Origin: an uncultured Sphingosinicella sp. | GTDB taxonomy: Bacteria > Pseudomonadota > Alphaproteobacteria > Sphingomonadales > Sphingomonadaceae | Direction: 5' to 3' | Length of the DNA stretch: 33,971 nucleotides | NCBI RefSeq assembly: GCF_902806315.1 | Contig: NZ_CADCWD010000001.1 | Location: forward strand, 1-33,971 | In this document: piece after piece, positions 9,249 through 16,595 of the stretch | Layout: every line of letters starts with the position of its first letter | Numbering within the stretch: position 1 is the first letter of the stretch | The notes under the pieces: generated by a model | Told to the model about the DNA's origin: nothing | Database searches by the model: none | The model's input: only the letters and a program-made list of their open reading frames with translations | Program-made: the position numbers and the translations under genes

Positions 9249-10756
9249 TCGACCCGCCAGCCGCCGTGACGCGCGGCGATGTCGCAAGAGGCGCGGGTCT
9301 CGCGGGGCTCGCTCGCCTGGGCGCTCTCATCGAAGCCGTCGCTCAACCGCTCTTCATCTGGCTGTACGGGCTCGCCACCTACGGTCTCTATGTGGTGCTC
9401 TGGGGCGCCATCAACCTCGTCTCGAACATCGTCGACCTGTCGATGACGGCCGCCCTCCAGCGCGTGGTGCCGACGGCCGATGACGAGGATCGCGCCCACG
9501 CCGCCGTCAAGCTCGCGCTCCTGATCGCCGGCATCCCGGCCGTTCTCGTGGCGATACTGATCGCCCTCTTCGCCGAGCAGATCGCCCCCTATCTCTCCGC
9601 CGCGCCGGAGGACCGCGCCACGCTCGCCACTGCGATCGCGCTCTTCGCTCCGGCCTTGCCGCTTTGGGTCTTCGTCGAAGTCGCGACCTCGGCCGCGCGC
9701 GCGCGCCGCGCCTTCGGGCCTGAAATCCGCCTGCGGATCCTGTGGGAGCAGACCGCCCGGATTCTCTTCGCCCTCGCCTTCTTCGCGCTCGGCGCCGGCA
9801 ATCTCGGGCTGGTCGCCGCGCATCTGAGTTCGCTGTTGCTGACCGCCCTGCTCTGCCTGCCGCTCCTGGCTCGCTATTATGATCTGCGCCGCATCCTGCG
9901 CGCACCCGTGCCCGCCGCCCTTCCCCGCACCATGGTGATCACTGGAGCAGCCCTCCTTCCCGCCGCGCTGGCACGCCGGCTCCTCATCGATGCTCCCCCG
10001 GTCGTCCTCAACCTGATGCTGCCCGGCACGCGCGGAGCCGTCGCCGCCGGCCTGTTCGAGATCGCCCGCAAGCTCTCGACCGTGCCGCTCATTGTTCGCC
10101 AAGCCTTTCAATATGTGATGGCGCCGCTCTCCTCGGCTCAGGCGCATGCCGACCGCGCCGAGATCGCGCCCATCTATCGCTTCGCGAGCCGAGTCTCGAC
10201 CGCGCTCGTCATTCCGCTCTCCGGCCTGCTCATCTTCGCCAGCGCGGACATATTGAGCGTCTACCGGGCGGAAGCGCAGGCTGCGGTCGTCCCTCTCATC
10301 CTCCTCGTCACCGCCCGTGCCGTCGAGGCGATCGTCGGGCCTGCCACGCCGATCGTCGAAATGGCCGGCCACCGCCTCCTCCCGCTTTTTAACAGCCTGT
10401 TGGGCGTAGCTTTGGGCGCTCTCCTCGTTGCCTTCCTCGTCCCGAACCACGGGGCCACTGGAATGGCGATCGCGGTCGGCGCCGCGACGATCGTCATCGC
10501 TTATGCCGCTACGCTGGAGCTGCGCATCTCTGATCGCCTCTCGCCGTTCGACCGCAAGCTCTTCCAGGGCCTCGCTATTGCGCTTGGCGGGGTGGCGCTG
10601 ATGGCGCTCGCCGAATCCGTCACCTCTGGACCCTCCCGCTTCGTCTCGGTCCTTACGCTGTGGGCGGTGACCAGCTGGCTTACGCTTCGCTTCGGCCTCG
10701 ACCGCCCTGACCGCGAGGCGCTCGGCGGAATGGCGCGGCGTCTGCGCCTCATCTAG
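9245..10756 (+). CDS. Polysaccharide/lipid flippase of the MOP superfamily (Wzx-like)
   Basis: A 503-residue multi-pass protein with about 12 to 14 predicted membrane helices and no large soluble domain, the profile of Wzx/MurJ-type flippases. The GTG start at 9245 overlaps the lptG stop (GTGA); in-frame sequence upstream is arginine-rich read-through of lptG and not plausible. The helix-rich N-terminus (GLARLGALIEAVAQPLFIWL) and the conserved small-residue helices fit lipopolysaccharide-biosynthesis flippases. Its substrate is probably a lipid-linked saccharide or glycosylated ceramide that must reach the periplasmic leaflet before LptFG picks it up. I cannot tell substrate from sequence. 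It ends about 100 bp before the next gene. Confidence 0.82.
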   Translation: MIDPPAAVTRGDVARGAGLAGLARLGALIEAVAQPLFIWLYGLATYGLYVVLWGAINLVSNIVDLSMTAALQRVVPTADDEDRAHAAVKLALLIAGIPAVLVAILIALFAEQIAPYLSAAPEDRATLATAIALFAPALPLWVFVEVATSAARARRAFGPEIRLRILWEQTARILFALAFFALGAGNLGLVAAHLSSLLLTALLCLPLLARYYDLRRILRAPVPAALPRTMVITGAALLPAALARRLLIDAPPVVLNLMLPGTRGAVAAGLFEIARKLSTVPLIVRQAFQYVMAPLSSAQAHADRAEIAPIYRFASRVSTALVIPLSGLLIFASADILSVYRAEAQAAVVPLILLVTARAVEAIVGPATPIVEMAGHRLLPLFNSLLGVALGALLVAFLVPNHGATGMAIAVGAATIVIAYAATLELRISDRLSPFDRKLFQGLAIALGGVALMALAESVTSGPSRFVSVLTLWAVTSWLTLRFGLDRPDREALGGMARRLRLI

Positions 10757-10861
10757 CCGCTCGGCCCAAAATCTGCCTTATTGCGAATTCATGACGGGGA
10801 CATACATAGGGTGGCAAGGGGAATGCCACGCCTGGTGTGTAGCAAAACCAAAGGGTTAGCC

Positions 10862-11629
10862 GTGAAGATCGCTCAAACGACGCGTCCGGGATTCTGGAAT
10901 CGCTCGCATCATCTGGACAAGATGACGCTCAAGGAGCTGTGGGTCGCTTACATCAGCTACCCGGCGATTGTCGCTTATATGCTGCTGAGCCTGGTCGCGA
11001 TTGGCCTCTACGCATGGCGGCCGGCTCCGCTGGTGCCCACGCTCGTTGCCGTCGGCGTCTCTGCCCTCGTCTACCCGCTCGTCTGGTATGTGCTCCACCG
11101 CTGGGTGCTGCACAGCCGCTGGATGTTCAAGATGCCGCTTCTCGCTTCGACCTGGAAGCGCATCCATTACGATCACCACCAGGATCCGAACCATCTCGAG
11201 GTGCTGTTCGGCGCGCTTCACACGACGCTGCCGACGATCGCGCTCGCGACGGCTCCGCTCGGCTATCTGATCGGCGGATTCGGCGGCGCCTGCATCGCAT
11301 TTGCGACCGGCCTCCTCACCACCTGCTTCTACGAATTCTGCCACTGCATCCAGCACCTCGCTTACAAGCCCAAGTCGAAGTGGCTGGCGGAGATGAAGAA
11401 GCGTCACATGGCGCACCATTTCCACGACGAGACCGGCAATTTCGGGATCACGACCTTCTTCTGGGACAAGCTGTTCGGCACCTTCTACGATCGCCCCGAG
11501 CGACCGGAGAAGAGCACGACGGTGTTCAATCTTGGCTACACGCCGGAAGTCGCCGAGAAGTGGCCCCACGTCGCGCGCCTGTCCGGCGGCGTCGCCACCA
11601 GCCACCCGCGCAAGCGCGGCGAGGGCTGA
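10862..11629 (+). CDS. Fatty acid hydroxylase / sterol desaturase family membrane oxygenase
   Basis: A 255-residue integral membrane di-iron oxygenase. The histidine clusters of the superfamily are all present: His79 and His84 (HRWVLH), His102/105/106 (HYDHH), His161/165 (HCIQH) and His182/185/186/188 (HMAHHFH), with hydrophobic helices between them. The GTG at 10862 has AAAGGG six bases upstream; an ATG at 10823 in the same frame is an alternative. Sphingomonad sphingolipids carry a 2-hydroxymyristoyl amide, so ceramide or fatty-acid 2-hydroxylation is the natural guess. However, the gene ends only 18 bp before the YcaO gene and could be cotranscribed with the peptide-modification genes, leaving a role in that pathway open. 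Confidence 0.85.
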   Translation: MKIAQTTRPGFWNRSHHLDKMTLKELWVAYISYPAIVAYMLLSLVAIGLYAWRPAPLVPTLVAVGVSALVYPLVWYVLHRWVLHSRWMFKMPLLASTWKRIHYDHHQDPNHLEVLFGALHTTLPTIALATAPLGYLIGGFGGACIAFATGLLTTCFYEFCHCIQHLAYKPKSKWLAEMKKRHMAHHFHDETGNFGITTFFWDKLFGTFYDRPERPEKSTTVFNLGYTPEVAEKWPHVARLSGGVATSHPRKRGEG

Positions 11630-11647
11630 TCCGCTCAGGTGCCGCTC

Positions 11648-12778
11648 ATGGCACCTGGTCCCCCCGAACCGCAAAGGGCGCTTGCGCCTGACGCGTTCTT
11701 CAAGCTGGTGTCGTCGGCGGCTGAACGCTGCGGCGTCACGCGCCTCGCCGACATCACTGGCCTCGATCGTGTCGGCCTCCCGGTCTGGCAGGCCGTTCGC
11801 CCGGAGGGGCGCGCACTCAGCGTCCATCAGGGCAAGGGAGCCTCGCCCCTCGCCGCCAAGATCGGCGCCCTCTGCGAAGCGATCGAGAGCCACTGCGCCG
11901 AGCATGCCATCGTCGATGGCCCGATCGCAGCCTTCTCGGATCTGCCCCCCACGCAGCGAGCACCCGACATCTCCGACTATAGCGTCGATCGTGCGCGGCC
12001 GTCCTGCGAGGACGAGCGCATCGCCTGGTGCGAGGCCACGGACCTTCTCACCGGAGCGTGCCGATACCTTCCTCACCCGCTCGTCTCGCTTGATTTCCGG
12101 TCCGGCCTTCCGAGCCGAATTGAACGGGTCAGCGGCGGCTTAGGCGCTGCGGCGAGTGAGGAGGAAGCCGTCAGGGTCGCCCTCCTGGAGTTGATCGAGC
12201 GCGATGCAGTCGGGGAGTGGCAGCGGCTTGTGCATGCCGAGAAGGCGGCGATTTCCCTGTTGCTCGATACATTGCCCTTCAACTGGTTTGGCGCCTGGCG
12301 GGACCGGCTGCGCGAACTCGGGATCGACGTGGAAGTGTTCGAACTGGATTCAATCGTCGATGTCCCCACCTTCTCGTGCGTCATCGGCGGCACGGAAGAG
12401 TTCGGCTCCGCCTATCGCCGCTTCTCCGGCACCGCTGCGCACCCGGACCCCGAGCAAGCGCTCTTCAAGGCCTTCGCGGAGGCGCTTCAATCGCGCCTGA
12501 CGCTGATCGCGGGCGTTCGGGACGACATACTTCCTTCTTATTACCGCCGGCACGTCACCTCACGGAAGAGCCCGGACTGGCCGCCGCCCGGCACCCGCAC
12601 TTGGCGGCCACGCCGAGCCAGTCCGGATCTAGCCTTTCTGGCGCACCAATTGGCGAAGCGGGGCTATCCGAACCTTCTCGTGAAGCGCCTCGACCGGGAC
12701 CTTAAAGGCGTCGCAGTCGCGAGGGTCTTCGTGCCAGGGCTCGCTTCCCTTACACGCAGTCGCAGGCCGCCAGCGTGA
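11648..12778 (+). CDS. YcaO-domain ATP-dependent peptide-backbone modifying enzyme
   Basis: A 376-residue YcaO protein. YcaO enzymes phosphorylate a backbone amide with ATP so that a nucleophile can attack, forming azolines or, with TfuA, thioamides. The ATP/Mg-binding glutamates appear as EAIES (77-81) and ELIERD (181-186), after the GKGASPLAA loop. The C-terminus lacks the proline-rich tail typical of azoline-forming YcaOs. I prefer the ATG at 11648, with AGGTG upstream, over a GTG at 11639. The end overlaps the TfuA start (GTGA), so the two proteins are coupled and likely form one complex. No E1-like/ocin-ThiF partner or azoline dehydrogenase is present, which argues for thioamidation. The substrate is probably the protein encoded at 13549-13899. 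Confidence 0.9.
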   Translation: MAPGPPEPQRALAPDAFFKLVSSAAERCGVTRLADITGLDRVGLPVWQAVRPEGRALSVHQGKGASPLAAKIGALCEAIESHCAEHAIVDGPIAAFSDLPPTQRAPDISDYSVDRARPSCEDERIAWCEATDLLTGACRYLPHPLVSLDFRSGLPSRIERVSGGLGAAASEEEAVRVALLELIERDAVGEWQRLVHAEKAAISLLLDTLPFNWFGAWRDRLRELGIDVEVFELDSIVDVPTFSCVIGGTEEFGSAYRRFSGTAAHPDPEQALFKAFAEALQSRLTLIAGVRDDILPSYYRRHVTSRKSPDWPPPGTRTWRPRRASPDLAFLAHQLAKRGYPNLLVKRLDRDLKGVAVARVFVPGLASLTRSRRPPA

Positions 12779-13518
12779 CGATCCTCGCCTTTGTGGGTCC
12801 ATCCCTTCCGCCCAGCGCGCGCAGCGACTTTCCCGGCGTGGAGTGGCGCCCCCCTGCCGAAGCCGGCGACCTGCTGCGGCTCCATCTCACACCCGGCAGC
12901 ACGGTCTGCCTCATCGACGGCTATTTCGACCATCGCCCGGCTGTCCGTCACAAGGAGATCCTGATCCTGTTGTCGGAGGACGTGAGGGTCCTCGGCGCGA
13001 GCAGCATAGGCGCCCTTCGCGCCGCCGAAATGTCCAAGCAGGGAATGATCGGCATCGGCGCGATCTACCGCGCCTATGCGCGTGGCACGATTGTAGGCGA
13101 CGACGAAGTCGCTTTGGTCCACGCGCCCGCCAAGCTCGACTGGAAAACCATGTCGGTCCCACTCGTGGACGTCCGCGCAACCCTGTGCCGCGCGCTTCGA
13201 GAGCGCGTCCTGCAACCTGCTGAAGCACGAGCCCTGCTCCGATCCGCGCGCTCGATCCATTATGTCGACCGTGATTGGCCCCTCCTACTGGACCGGCACA
13301 AAGCGTCACCGGAATTCAAGGCATGGCTTCAAACCGGTCAGGTCGATCAGAAGACGATCGACGCGCAGAGCTGCCTGCGCGCCGCTGCTTCTCCCGCACC
13401 TTCCGCCTCGCGTCCGGAAATGGTCCGCACCCGCTTAGTGGACCTGCTCGCGAAGGAGTGCGGAATCGATCTTGAGACGCGGTTGAAAGAGGGTCACACT
13501 GAGCGCGCGGGGGACTGA
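12775..13518 (+). CDS. TfuA-like protein, YcaO partner for thioamide formation
   Basis: A 247-residue TfuA-family protein. The N-terminal domain shows the family pattern: FVGPSL (6-11), IDGYFDHRPAVRHKEIL (47-63), LGASSIGALRAAEM (73-86), GMIGIGAIY, then GDDEVAL near 108-114. The C-terminal 130 residues are less conserved. TfuA is named for the trifolitoxin operon and is the usual companion of YcaO enzymes that make thioamides, probably helping to deliver sulfur. Translation starts at a GTG overlapping the YcaO stop. The precursor-like gene begins 30 bp downstream, completing a three-gene set. All recognisable motifs are intact. Confidence 0.9.
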   Translation: MTILAFVGPSLPPSARSDFPGVEWRPPAEAGDLLRLHLTPGSTVCLIDGYFDHRPAVRHKEILILLSEDVRVLGASSIGALRAAEMSKQGMIGIGAIYRAYARGTIVGDDEVALVHAPAKLDWKTMSVPLVDVRATLCRALRERVLQPAEARALLRSARSIHYVDRDWPLLLDRHKASPEFKAWLQTGQVDQKTIDAQSCLRAAASPAPSASRPEMVRTRLVDLLAKECGIDLETRLKEGHTERAGD

Positions 13519-13548
13519 GCCTCCGCGCACCTGTGCAGGAGACGAGAA

Positions 13549-13899
13549 GTGACTGAGGACAGGACTAGCGGCCCGAGCAGCGACGGCGCTTCCGGGCAGC
13601 CGCAATTCATCGTCCAACATGGCGACAGATATTATCGGACCCAAGTGGTGGGAGAAGTGGATCAGCAGGAACAGTCGACCCTCCAGCAGGCGGAGCCGGC
13701 CGGACGCGCGTTCCTCGATCCTCAGGGGAGCGAAGGCCTTTCGTTCAAGTCGATGCCCGCGCCAGCGAGCTTCGCCAATATCGGGGACGACACGACGGAC
13801 ATGGCCGCGCCTTCCGCCTCGGCCAATATCGGCGATGAGATCAGCAACGACAGCATGGCCGCGCCTTCGAGCATGGCCAATATCGAGGACAAGAATTAG
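13549..13899 (+). CDS. Candidate multi-core RiPP precursor peptide (116 aa)
   Basis: This reads as a leader plus repeated core rather than an enzyme. Residues 1-67 are polar and glutamine-rich, with one patterned stretch (QFIVQHGDRYYRTQVVGEV, 19-37) that could be the recognition segment. Residues 69-116 hold three repeats starting at Met69, Met85 and Met103, with consensus M-[PA]-A-P-x-x-x-A-N-I-[GE]-D separated by acidic Ser/Thr/Asn linkers. At DNA level the string GCCAATATCG recurs exactly in each copy. There is no cysteine anywhere, so thiazoles are impossible and backbone thioamidation or Ser/Thr cyclisation would be needed. AGGAG seven bases before the GTG start supports translation. I infer that it is the substrate of the upstream YcaO-TfuA pair; I do not recognise the family. 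Confidence 0.8.
   Translation: MTEDRTSGPSSDGASGQPQFIVQHGDRYYRTQVVGEVDQQEQSTLQQAEPAGRAFLDPQGSEGLSFKSMPAPASFANIGDDTTDMAAPSASANIGDEISNDSMAAPSSMANIEDKN
13753..13896 (+). repeat. Three tandem core repeats within the precursor gene
   Basis: Repeat units begin at 13753, 13801 and 13855 (48 and 54 bp apart), each opening with an ATG codon. Units two and three share ATGGCCGCGCCTTC exactly. All three contain GCCAATATCG. The final unit diverges after the motif (NIED instead of NIGD) and ends in the stop codon. In-frame, variable-linker amplification of a short motif is typical of multi-core precursor peptides. Confidence 0.85.
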
Positions 13900-13925
13900 G
13901 CGATTGCCGCTCAGGCGGCGATCGC
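13900..13925. terminator. Hairpin between convergent genes
   Basis: GCGATTGCCGC (13900-13910) pairs with GCGGCGATCGC (13915-13925) through a four-base loop, 11 pairs including one G-U wobble. It sits right after the precursor stop and overlaps the stop codon of the convergent regulator. No T-run follows on either strand, so termination is plausible but not certain; it may instead protect the 3' ends of both mRNAs. Confidence 0.5.
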
Positions 13926-15518
13926 AAGGTCAAGCAGCCGGGTGAGCCAGGCCCGGCGCGCTTCATCCTGGAAGGGGTTGTGATACAGCGCCCACTGCTT
14001 CAGTCGTGCCGCATCGAGCGGTTCCGGCCCCGCCCATCGCTGCGCCATTGCGGCCCGCCAGCGCTCGAAGCGGTGAGCCAGGTCCGGCGTTCCTGATCCG
14101 GCGGCAGCAAGCAGCGCATAAAGTTCGCTGATCACGGTCGGCTCGGTCTGGGCCTGGTCGTCCGGATGATGACGGCGGACAACCGCGAACTTTTCGGCCG
14201 CCGCCTCGAACTCCTCACGCATGAGGTGCAGCAGACCCTGCTCCAGATGGGGTGCCTCGGTCGGGAGCGGACTGAGATTCTCCCGGCGCTCGAGAAGGTC
14301 CGCCGCCTGGTCGAGATCTTCCAGAAAGATGAGCCCGGTCGCCACTTCGATCAGCCGCCGCTGGTTGAACGGGTTGAGATAAAGCGCCTCCCGCAGATGC
14401 TCCCGCGCCAGCAACTTCTCGCCGGCCCAAAGGTGCGACCACCCCTTTGCCGTGTGGAGATTCGACTCCGTTGAGTCGACGGCGATGGCCTGGTGCACCA
14501 GTTCATAGGCGCGGGCCCGCGTCCCGTCGTCCGACGAGCCGATGCCGTTGAAGCAAAAGTCCGTATTGTAGAGCCGGGTCAGCGGCGGATAGGCCTGGAT
14601 GAAGCCGGGCTGCTCCTCGATCAGCCTTTCCCAGATCGTGGCGATTTCTTTGGCCTCTGCCAGCGTCTCCGTGCGGCGCATCCGCAGGCGGGTGTGGAAA
14701 TAGATCTCATAGGCGTCGCCCGGCTTGGCCGGAAGATTGGCGAGCAGATCGTCATGCAGGCGCGGAAGCGCCGCGGCGGCGATCTTGCGCACGAGCTCCT
14801 CGACATGCTGACCGAGGTTGCCGCCGGTCAGCTCCAGCGTCTCGCCCCAAATGATCGCGCCGGAGCGAAGCCGCGACAGGCGCGCGAAGACGCGCACGGC
14901 CTCGCCCTCGGGCAGCAGCTTCACCGAAAGCTGATAATCCCGGTCGCCGAACCCCGCGCCATCGACCCCTGCCTTAGCGTCCACCTCGGAAACGAGGCGG
15001 ATGTCGCGGAAGCGGGAAAGGGCGAACAGCACCTCCTCGCGAAGCACCGCGCCGAAATGCGAGCGGGTTTCGCTGGGGGCCAGAGCTTCGAACGCAGGCA
15101 CGTACAGCAAGGGCGGGCGACCGATCTCGGTCTGAGGCCGTCGCTCGGGTTCGCTCGAGGGCGCGGGCTGCCCTGCCGGGCGCTCGCCCCCGCTCACCGG
15201 CGCGATGAGCCGGTAGCCCCTGCCGTAGACGCTTTCGATATATTTGGGCGTGCGCGATTCATCGCCCAGCGCGCGGCGCAGCTCCTTGATCACCGACGTC
15301 AGGGCGGATTCGCTGACGATCGTTCCATCCCACACGGAGGAGAAGAGCGCGTCCTTGGTCAGCAGCCGCCCCTGCTGCTCGGCCAGCATCAGCAACACTC
15401 CATAGGCCTTGTTACCCAGCTTGACCGGGCCCGCGGACCCCCACAGCCGCTCATCGCCCGTGTCGAGCTTGAAATCGCCAAAGGCGAGGACCCGCGCCGG
15501 ATCCGTTCCAGCTTGCAT
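13911..15518 (-). CDS. Transcriptional regulator with OmpR-type DNA-binding domain and TPR-like C-terminus
   Basis: A 535-residue protein. The N-terminal ~100 residues form a winged-helix Trans_Reg_C domain, with the family signature LTSVIKELRRALGD followed by YIESVYGRGYRLIAP. A Pro-rich linker, a domain of about 130 residues similar to that of CadC/adenylate-cyclase-type regulators (YVPAFEALAPSE onward) and helical TPR-like repeats follow. No membrane helix is seen, so it is not a classical membrane-bound CadC. The start at 15518 is preceded by GGAG-type sequence; the frame stays open to 15671 but the upstream part is not domain-like. It converges on the YcaO-TfuA-precursor set and is divergent from the 37-residue peptide, so either could be its target. 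Confidence 0.85.
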   Translation of the reverse strand: MQAGTDPARVLAFGDFKLDTGDERLWGSAGPVKLGNKAYGVLLMLAEQQGRLLTKDALFSSVWDGTIVSESALTSVIKELRRALGDESRTPKYIESVYGRGYRLIAPVSGGERPAGQPAPSSEPERRPQTEIGRPPLLYVPAFEALAPSETRSHFGAVLREEVLFALSRFRDIRLVSEVDAKAGVDGAGFGDRDYQLSVKLLPEGEAVRVFARLSRLRSGAIIWGETLELTGGNLGQHVEELVRKIAAAALPRLHDDLLANLPAKPGDAYEIYFHTRLRMRRTETLAEAKEIATIWERLIEEQPGFIQAYPPLTRLYNTDFCFNGIGSSDDGTRARAYELVHQAIAVDSTESNLHTAKGWSHLWAGEKLLAREHLREALYLNPFNQRRLIEVATGLIFLEDLDQAADLLERRENLSPLPTEAPHLEQGLLHLMREEFEAAAEKFAVVRRHHPDDQAQTEPTVISELYALLAAAGSGTPDLAHRFERWRAAMAQRWAGPEPLDAARLKQWALYHNPFQDEARRAWLTRLLDLAIAA

Positions 15519-15760
15519 AACTCTCCATCTCCGCTGCGCGGAGCCCCCCGTCGGGCGGCCGCAAACGCGCAGGCCCCCGATGAGCCTGCCTAGCATGGTG
15601 ATGGCGCAGATTCGAGCATGGCTCCTGAGAAGAGGCTGAAAGGATCGTGAAACGGTAAATTCCAGAATCATTCCAGCATGGCCTCAGGAAGTCGCCGAAC
15701 GAGCCGGCTATCCCAACAATGCACCGGCAACAGCGTCGGCGCAGCAGATGGAGACAGACG

Positions 15761-15874
15761 ATGTTCCGAAGGAGTTTGCTCGCAATCGCCGCCTCACTCA
15801 TGACGCTGAGCGCGTTCAGCGGCACGCTTGCGGTCCTGGGCAGCCAGAATGCCGACCAGGTGCAAGTTGCCTGA
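15761..15874 (+). CDS. 37-residue secreted or membrane-associated small peptide
   Basis: A short frame beginning MFRRSLLAIAASLMTLSAF and ending QVQVA. The basic start, the hydrophobic core of about 15 residues and the small-residue region make it look like a signal peptide plus a tail of about 12 to 15 residues, or a single-span membrane peptide. GGAGA lies seven bases before the ATG, good ribosome-site placement. It is divergent from the regulator at 13911-15518 with a 242-bp shared upstream region. I do not know a function. It could be an exported signal or simply a small envelope peptide of sphingomonads. Confidence 0.65.
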   Translation: MFRRSLLAIAASLMTLSAFSGTLAVLGSQNADQVQVA

Positions 15875-15965
15875 GGCGCATGCACGGAGCGAGTCGAGCC
15901 TGCTTGGCAAGCCCGCAGAGCCCCGGGTCGGCTGCTTGTCCGGCTCGGGGCCGCGGGTAAGCCCG

Positions 15966-16595
15966 GTGTTTAGTGCCGCGGGTCAATGCCGGCAGGTTCT
16001 GCGTCTCCTCCCCGGGGGCGCAAATGGGGAAGGCGCGTCCGCTGCGAGTCCGGACGATATTCTTTCGCCCCGCATCGAAACGCCAAGGCTGGTCCTGCGG
16101 CGGTATGAGGAGCGCGACTTCGACGCCTTCTACCGTATGGCGTCGGACAGGGGCATGTTCCGCTATTCAGAACGCGGTCCCATGACCAGCGACGAGGTTT
16201 GGACGCGGCTGCTGCGCCATGCCGGCCATTGGAGCCTGCTCGGCTATGGCGTTTTCGCGGTCGAGGAGAAGGCGACCGGCCGCTATGCAGGCGAAGCCGG
16301 GCTCGGCCAGTTCCGGCGCGGCCTTGGCGAGCCGTTCGATAGCCGCGCGGAGATCAGTTGGTCCATCGCGCCCGATCTGCAGGGCCAGGGCTATGCGCAG
16401 GAAGCTGCCGCGGCGGCCCTGCGCTGGTTTGCTCTTCGCGAGCCCGGCCCCACCGTGTGCATGATCCATTACGCGAACTCGCCGTCGCTGCGGGTCGCAG
16501 CGAAGCTCGGCTACCGGCAATATGCCACGCTCGATTACAAAGGCTATCCGGCCCTGTTGTTCGAGCGGAGCGAGGTTGCCGTCCGGCCTCAGTGA
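15966..16595 (+). CDS. GNAT-family acetyltransferase (RimJ/RimL-like)
   Basis: The recognisable domain covers about 175 residues, beginning IETPRLVLRRYEERDFDAF, the standard opening of RimJ/RimL-type GNAT proteins. It continues with EISWSIAPDLQGQGYAQEA, which carries the acetyl-CoA pyrophosphate-binding Q/RxxGxG/A loop, and the closing NSPSLRVAAKLGYRQ helix. Such enzymes acetylate amino groups of ribosomal proteins, small molecules or antibiotics; the substrate cannot be read here. The start is uncertain: no ATG lies near the domain, so I give an in-frame GTG at 15966 (209 aa). The frame is open further upstream to an ATG at 15828, but that stretch overlaps the 37-residue gene and looks non-coding. 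The next gene starts 31 bp downstream. Confidence 0.8.
   Translation: MFSAAGQCRQVLRLLPGGANGEGASAASPDDILSPRIETPRLVLRRYEERDFDAFYRMASDRGMFRYSERGPMTSDEVWTRLLRHAGHWSLLGYGVFAVEEKATGRYAGEAGLGQFRRGLGEPFDSRAEISWSIAPDLQGQGYAQEAAAAALRWFALREPGPTVCMIHYANSPSLRVAAKLGYRQYATLDYKGYPALLFERSEVAVRPQ

What the first reader, a model, noticed from the sequence alone, without database searches (positions are those of the whole stretch)
11648..13899. Compact YcaO-TfuA-precursor set: a candidate undescribed thioamidated peptide system
The sequence shows a YcaO gene overlapping a TfuA gene, then 30 bp later a strongly ribosome-bound 116-residue frame that looks like leader plus repeated cores. YcaO with TfuA is established as a pairing for backbone thioamidation. 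There is no E1-like partner, dehydrogenase, protease or dedicated exporter beside it, so this is a minimal form of the pathway. I do not recognise the precursor family. The function of the product is unknown.
Basis: partly seen in the sequence, partly recalled or inferred. Interest (0 to 1): 0.92.

Follow-up and report, generated by a model that had tools for sequence, protein, structure and literature searches.

The report
YcaO-TfuA peptide modification gene set
A sphingomonad bacterium carries a small gene set that probably swaps oxygen for sulfur in the backbone of a short repeated peptide; relatives carry the same set in varied forms next to a regulator gene, so it looks like an undescribed branch of a known kind of peptide pathway.

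Summary
In detail: YcaO (11648-12778) overlaps TfuA (12775-13518), and a 116-codon frame (13549-13899) follows 30 bp later with a good ribosome site and three 41-nt repeats encoding (M/P)xAPxxxANIxD.

In a tree of 56 YcaOs the window sits in a group of 24 sphingomonad rows (SH-aLRT 98). 23 of 24 have a small ORF with the same hairpin-like leader beside the pair; most end in a related core, x-[NQ]-[TI]-x-x. The ORF is upstream of ycaO in 22, downstream in the window; the last row has a 47-aa core-only ORF downstream. A leader profile hit 21 of 397 family genomes, 20 with TfuA.

Best reading: YcaO-TfuA thioamidates the repeated cores, as in thiovarsolin, and cell peptidases release short thioamidated peptides. 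No chemistry was shown. A minimal precursor+YcaO+TfuA set is already known. Boldest open reading: a thioamidated signal read by the regulator.

The parts
11648..12778 (+). YcaO-family enzyme (376 aa), predicted ATP-dependent peptide backbone thioamidation
   Evidence: PF02624 E 2.3e-49; TIGR00702 YcaO-type kinase domain 113.5 bits, cut-off 75.65; closest solved sequence MJ1094 (6pe3), E 1.1e-13
12775..13518 (+). TfuA partner (247 aa), predicted sulfide delivery
   Evidence: PF07812 E 2.8e-42; solved TfuA-domain protein 6xp8, E 4.7e-25
13537..13542 (+). ribosome-binding site AGGAGA, 6 bases before GTG
13549..13899 (+). precursor peptide, 116 aa, no Cys, leader plus three core repeats
   Evidence: leader profile E 1.3e-13 (the window's own row is in that profile)
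13603..13644 (+). leader beta-hairpin (residues 19-32) shared with sphingomonad homologues
   Evidence: AlphaFold strands 19-24 and 27-32; pLDDT of residues 21-30 is 89, other blocks 46-65; alignment A2
13752..13792 (+). core repeat 1 (MPAPASFANIGDD)
13800..13840 (+). core repeat 2 (MAAPSASANIGDE)
13854..13894 (+). core repeat 3 (MAAPSSMANIEDK)
13911..15671 (-). convergent winged-helix (OmpR/CadC type) + TPR regulator, no clear membrane helix; likely start near 15518
   Evidence: PF00486 E 8e-17; TPR_2 below its cut-off, 20.8 of 27 bits; highest 19-residue hydropathy mean 1.27; convergent beside the pair in 23 of the 24 grouped rows, window counted
15828..16595 (+). GNAT acetyltransferase, optional neighbour (role inferred only)
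   Evidence: PF13302 E 2.1e-24; also in 9 of 34 sphingomonad loci

Best explanation
A YcaO-TfuA ribosomal-peptide (RiPP) pathway. TfuA supplies sulfide, probably by hydrolysing a thiocarboxylated ThiS-type carrier encoded elsewhere in the genome. YcaO activates backbone amides with ATP and converts one or more per core repeat to thioamides. The leader hairpin and/or the conserved ANI core motif present the substrate. No protease gene was found beside the set, so general peptidases trim the precursor to short thioamidated peptides that resist further digestion, as proposed for thiovarsolins. The convergent winged-helix/TPR gene controls, or is controlled by, the pathway. Shown here: gene content, coding character, repeats, and conservation and co-inheritance in relatives. 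Inferred: the chemistry, the modified residue (guess: within N-I/T), release, and the regulator's role. The product's biological purpose is not established.
For: YcaO and TfuA domains well above cut-off. YcaO aligns with archaeal MJ1094, keeping GKGA...EAIE, IERDA and QSR stretches (that these are ATP-site motifs is recalled). One ThiS-family carrier gene in the own genome. Leader profile: 21 of 397 family genomes hit, 20 with TfuA; of 8 hit genomes that gave no row to the profile, 7 carry TfuA, five of those from genera that did give rows. 23 of 24 grouped YcaOs have a leader-bearing small ORF beside them. Core motif in the last 40 residues: 13 of 16 (shuffle mean 2.6, maximum 9), and 4 of 5 read later (mean 0.33, maximum 4; four or more in 1 of 20000 shuffles of the five tails). 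Copy number varies: six FANTEPPS-type units in L004 5712-5966, three in the window, two in L035, L036 and L038, one in most others. Literature: YcaO and TfuA are both required for thioamidation in thiostreptamide S4 (PMC8153245, passages); precursor+YcaO+TfuA suffice for thiovarsolin B (PMC6511847, passages).
Against: No chemical data. Only 1 of 97 relatives (own genome not counted) gives a direct match to the window precursor, E 6.9e-4, so homology rests mainly on the profile, whose alignment I chose. One congener (L035) has a core-only 47-aa ORF without the leader, so the leader is not universal. The core motif was chosen after seeing the sequences; four of the five later sequences are from genera already seen, and one of the 13 hits (L066) lies outside its tail. 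L042, L050, L054 and L039 fail the strict motif. Four further leader ORFs were not in that count: L048 passes, L049, L052 and L041's first leader ORF fail. The TfuA genomes without a leader hit number 10 of 30.
Confidence: 0.75

Rival explanations
1. The pair modifies a cellular protein (as with archaeal McrA, or uL16 in E. coli) and the small gene is incidental.
For: The top NCBIfam hits of both proteins are the McrA-glycine thioamidation models TIGR03266 and NF033432; YcaO enzymes that act on proteins exist (PMC13063428, passages).
Against: Both models score far below cut-off (128.4 of 365 bits; 174.1 of 235.2). The leader ORF family tracks the pair (20 of 21 hit genomes carry TfuA). The pair is patchy: 5 of 26 genomes in the genus, 30 of 397 in the family sample, unlike a housekeeping function. 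[quoted passage not shown]
Confidence: 0.08
2. YcaO installs another change (oxazoline, amidine) on the repeated cores, not a thioamide.
For: YcaO enzymes do several chemistries (PMC13063428 passage); the repeats contain Ser and Thr.
Against: TfuA is tied to thioamidation in the studied cases (passages); no E1-like partner or azoline dehydrogenase among the 26 window ORFs scanned; the precursor has no Cys.
Confidence: 0.1
3. The thioamidated peptide is a bacteriocin-like product rather than a signal or internal metabolite. (Compatible with the best explanation; concerns purpose only.)
For: Patchy distribution and changing cores fit conflict between microbes; known thioamidated RiPPs are bioactive (abstract of PMC8120280).
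Against: No peptide exporter or immunity candidate seen beside the set among the ORFs scanned; PMC8120280 notes, however, that transporters may not be needed.
Confidence: 0.25

Closest known systems
Thiovarsolin pathway (varA-varY-varT, Streptomyces varsoviensis)
   Same: Repeated cores in one precursor, YcaO+TfuA as minimal set, no specific protease in the cluster (PMC6511847, passages)
   Different: Core APR/GPR versus ANI; thiovarsolin cluster also has heme-oxygenase-like, ATP-grasp, amidinotransferase and MFS genes; here a hairpin leader and a convergent wHTH/TPR regulator
Thioamitides (thiostreptamide S4, thioviridamide)
   Same: YcaO+TfuA required for thioamidation (PMC8153245, passages)
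   Different: No macrocycle-forming genes found among the window ORFs scanned, and no Cys in the precursor
McrA-glycine thioamidation (YcaO-TfuA of methanogens)
   Same: Nearest NCBIfam models and a solved archaeal YcaO relative
   Different: Scores far below model cut-offs; a small precursor gene family sits beside the pair
Proteobacterial TfuA-related clusters of Malit et al. 2021 (PMC8120280)
   Same: Same kind of 'TfuA-related' locus
   Different: The held main text has no word starting with 'sphingo'; supplementary precursor clusters not viewed, so overlap cannot be excluded

Membership tests
YcaO-TfuA thioamidated RiPP | Adjacent ycaO and tfuA genes | tested here: met
YcaO-TfuA thioamidated RiPP | Linked precursor gene conserved with the pair | tested here: met
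   23 of 24 grouped rows have a leader-bearing ORF beside the pair
YcaO-TfuA thioamidated RiPP | Backbone thioamide on the product | not testable with these tools
   needs mass spectrometry
Thiovarsolin family | Repeated core in precursor | tested here: met
   three copies
Thiovarsolin family | APR/GPR core | tested here: not met
   core is ANIGD/ANIED; not filed as a thiovarsolin
Thioamitides | Macrocycle genes and Cys-bearing core | tested here: not met
   no Cys in precursor; no such genes among 26 window ORFs scanned
McrA-glycine thioamidation (TIGR03266/NF033432) | Score above curated cut-off | tested here: not met
   128.4 of 365 and 174.1 of 235.2 bits
Azol(in)e peptides (SagD-type) | TIGR03604 cut-off and E1-like partner | tested here: not met
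   90.2 of 219.25 bits; no partner among the ORFs scanned

The most novel reading that the evidence does not exclude
A Gram-negative peptide-signalling circuit: the repeated precursor yields protease-resistant thioamidated peptides (ANI/NTx core) that are read inside the cell by the neighbouring winged-helix/TPR regulator, with core and receptor changing together between lineages. It would be an analogue of TPR-receptor peptide signalling of Gram-positives (recalled, not searched) with a sulfur-modified ligand. Peptide binding by the regulator was not tested: its model was too poor.
Probability: 0.18. Interest if true: 0.85.

Novelty: new variant of a known kind. Interest (0 to 1): 0.55.

Why it matters
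PMC8120280 (2021) says all then-known YcaO-TfuA thioamidated RiPPs came from actinobacteria although 70% of the unique clusters were proteobacterial. This work outlines a recognisable sphingomonad family: hairpin leader, N/Q-T/I core in one to several copies, convergent regulator. Leader-bearing, core-only and six-copy substrates exist beside related enzymes, so the substrate rule of YcaO-TfuA becomes testable by natural variation, and the pathway is tied to a specific regulator.

Tried and rejected
Housekeeping-substrate reading: weakened by patchy distribution and the linked ORF family. Pfam/NCBIfam: no hit for the window precursor; for seven homologues only noise, E 0.02-0.18. Promoter/terminator scan of 10700-15900 found none. 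AlphaFold of the regulator with 2 rows gave pLDDT 52, pTM 0.28, so no fold search was run. The precursor model (4 rows) is trustworthy only for the hairpin. Regulator distribution: 74 of 397 family genomes match at E<=1e-20, many through the DNA-binding part alone; matches running past residue 460 of 535 occur in 22 genomes, all TfuA-bearing (counted by eye; only three candidates per genome were scored there). The Mantel tests do not correct for shared descent. In the 30-row version five rows are YcaO-TfuA fusions, so their YcaO and TfuA rows are the same protein; one search repeats it on 23 unfused rows.

Rows dropped: hid ORFs rich in Arg/Cys to suppress off-frame ORFs, which hid the L039, L066 and L067 precursors (seen later). 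Class loci without an obvious precursor were not pursued. L063 (matches split over frames) and L053, L103, L144 (no complete pair matched in the fetched stretch) are not in the tree. One search stopped with an error after its tree; redid it.

Full report
OBSERVATION. YcaO (11648-12778, PF02624) and TfuA (12775-13518, PF07812) overlap by four bases. The frame 13549-13899 starts 30 bp on, with AGGAGA six bases before GTG and gene-like codon-position GC. Three 41-nt direct repeats (13752, 13800, 13854) encode (M/P)xAPxxxANI[GE]D. The self-match score of residues 60-116 is reached by 1 of 3000 shuffles. The peptide has no Cys. The own assembly (2.69 Mb, 95.8% complete) has one YcaO and one ThiS-family carrier.

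RELATIVES. A scan of genome contigs with the YcaO brought one locus, L004, Sphingosinicella sp. LHD-64, 54% identical; the tool warns that near records may be left out. Upstream of its ycaO lie two ORFs with a leader like the window's (EPQF..E..GKLYLTLAVLEYD) and one ORF with six FANTEPPS-type units. TfuA occurs in 30 of 397 genomes of the family sample, 5 of 26 of the genus, 21 of 385 of the class sample and 10 of 246 of the order sample; samples overlap and each includes the own genome. I fetched neighbourhoods of 34 sphingomonad TfuA loci and 24 from other alphaproteobacteria, plus one contig piece with YcaO only, L144.

TREE. Eight other sphingomonad rows form a second set, five of them fused YcaO-TfuA proteins of 633-636 aa; L040 falls among the other alphaproteobacteria.

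PRECURSOR FAMILY. 23 of the 24 rows have a leader-bearing small ORF beside the pair: upstream of ycaO in 22, downstream in the window. For 18 the leader profile finds it; L066, L067 and L141-L143 were read from ORF lists. The remaining row, L035, has a 47-aa ORF 40 bp downstream of tfuA, with CGGAGG before its ATG, ending TEANIRPTKSSANIDPNKK and lacking the leader. The 16-row profile (A2) hit 21 of 397 family genomes; 20 carry TfuA, and the exception is weak (G350, E 0.0063). Ten of the 30 TfuA genomes had no leader hit: those of L035, L040 and the eight of the second set. Thirteen of the hit genomes gave rows to the profile. Of the other 8, 7 carry TfuA, two of them (G055, G346) from genera that gave no row.

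CORE. The tails share x-[NQ]-[TI]-x-x: ANIGD (window), ANIRP/ANIDP (L035), ANTEP (six-unit ORF) and AQTDP (L041/L004), AQTRP/AQTNP (L036, L038), QQTWG (L044), QQTGP (L046), NTGxx (L047, L060, L067). The strict pattern [NQ][TI]x[PDGESN] occurs in the last 40 residues of 13 of 16 sequences (shuffle mean 2.6, maximum 9 in 5000 shuffles), though the L066 hit lies outside its tail, and in 4 of 5 sequences read later (mean 0.33, maximum 4; four or more in 1 of 20000 shuffles of the five tails). These 21 are not all the leader ORFs: of four left out, L048 passes and L049, L052 and L041's first leader ORF fail; the two core-only ORFs (L035, L041) pass. The pattern was chosen by eye and four of the five later sequences are from genera already seen, so this is support, not proof. 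AlphaFold gives a confident hairpin only at residues 19-32.

REGULATOR. A convergent winged-helix/TPR gene (13911-15671, -) ends 11 bp from the precursor stop. Its homologue lies convergent beside tfuA in 29 of 34 sphingomonad loci (L039, L040, L056, L059, L063 lack it in that search; one search does find one at L059 and, 14 kb off, in L056's genome). No match at E<=1e-5 lies in the 24 other alphaproteobacterial stretches. In the 24-row group it is convergent in 23, window counted; L039 has a weaker relative upstream, in the same direction as the pair. Pairwise distances of regulator and YcaO correlate (Mantel r 0.94 on 30 rows; 0.94 on 23 unfused rows, 0.90 on 19 after dropping near-copies), much as YcaO and TfuA do (0.91, 0.92, 0.86); shared descent alone can give this. 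The own genome has no second match reaching beyond the DNA-binding part. In 397 family genomes, matches running past residue 460 occur in 22, all TfuA-bearing. A GNAT gene lies beyond it in 9 of 34 loci and in the window.

MECHANISM. From the literature: YcaO and TfuA are both needed for thioamidation in thiostreptamide S4, and an archaeal TfuA hydrolyses thiocarboxylated ThiS to feed its YcaO (PMC8153245, passages). Precursor+YcaO+TfuA suffice for thiovarsolin B, whose repeated APR cores are thought to be released by endogenous peptidases (PMC6511847, passages). By that analogy the window set thioamidates its ANI repeats and cell peptidases trim them. This chemistry is inferred, and so is the site. 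The core-only ORFs in L035 and L004 suggest that the core itself can be recognised; PMC13063428 notes that some YcaOs read residues near the modified site (passage).

NOVELTY. Minimality is known. Paper searches (listings only): TfuA+sphingo, 6 papers; thioamide+RiPP+Sphingomonas+precursor peptide, 2 papers; YcaO/TfuA/thioamide sets (7 papers; 40 of 127 listed); thioamide/quorum sensing/YcaO/tetratricopeptide, 10 of 13 listed. None was recognisably about such loci by title and abstract; no search named the regulator. Of PMC8120280 I saw the outline, passages, the first part of section 9 and section 13; its main text has no 'sphingo', but its 797 precursor families are in supplements I could not open. 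I call it a new variant of a known kind.

Noticed in passing
L004 4917-5153, 5236-5595, 5712-5966: Three consecutive small ORFs upstream of ycaO: two with the leader (the first without a recognisable core) and one with six FANTEPPS-type units but no leader motif, as if leader and core could sit on separate peptides.
   Followed up: partly
L057, L058, L059, L061, L062: YcaO and TfuA fused in one 633-636 aa protein, each with an upstream small ORF whose N-terminus resembles the leader only distantly, if at all.
   Followed up: partly
L093 (138-aa ORF, 984-568 bp upstream of the ycaO match start): TfuA locus of another alphaproteobacterial family with a putative precursor carrying five identical DDSQRHAANFIGT units plus a diverged one.
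   Followed up: no
L107, L098, L101 (ORFs upstream of ycaO): Other putative multi-core precursors at alphaproteobacterial TfuA loci: three GKQRFA units (L107); paired SAEIF or SADLY units (L098, L101).
   Followed up: no
L063 (G055): YcaO and TfuA matches split over frames; the locus looks decayed or carries sequencing errors.
   Followed up: no
window 15828-16595: GNAT acetyltransferase beyond the regulator, kept in 9 of 34 loci; thiovarsolins are N-acetylated, probably by a host enzyme, so a role is conceivable.
   Followed up: partly
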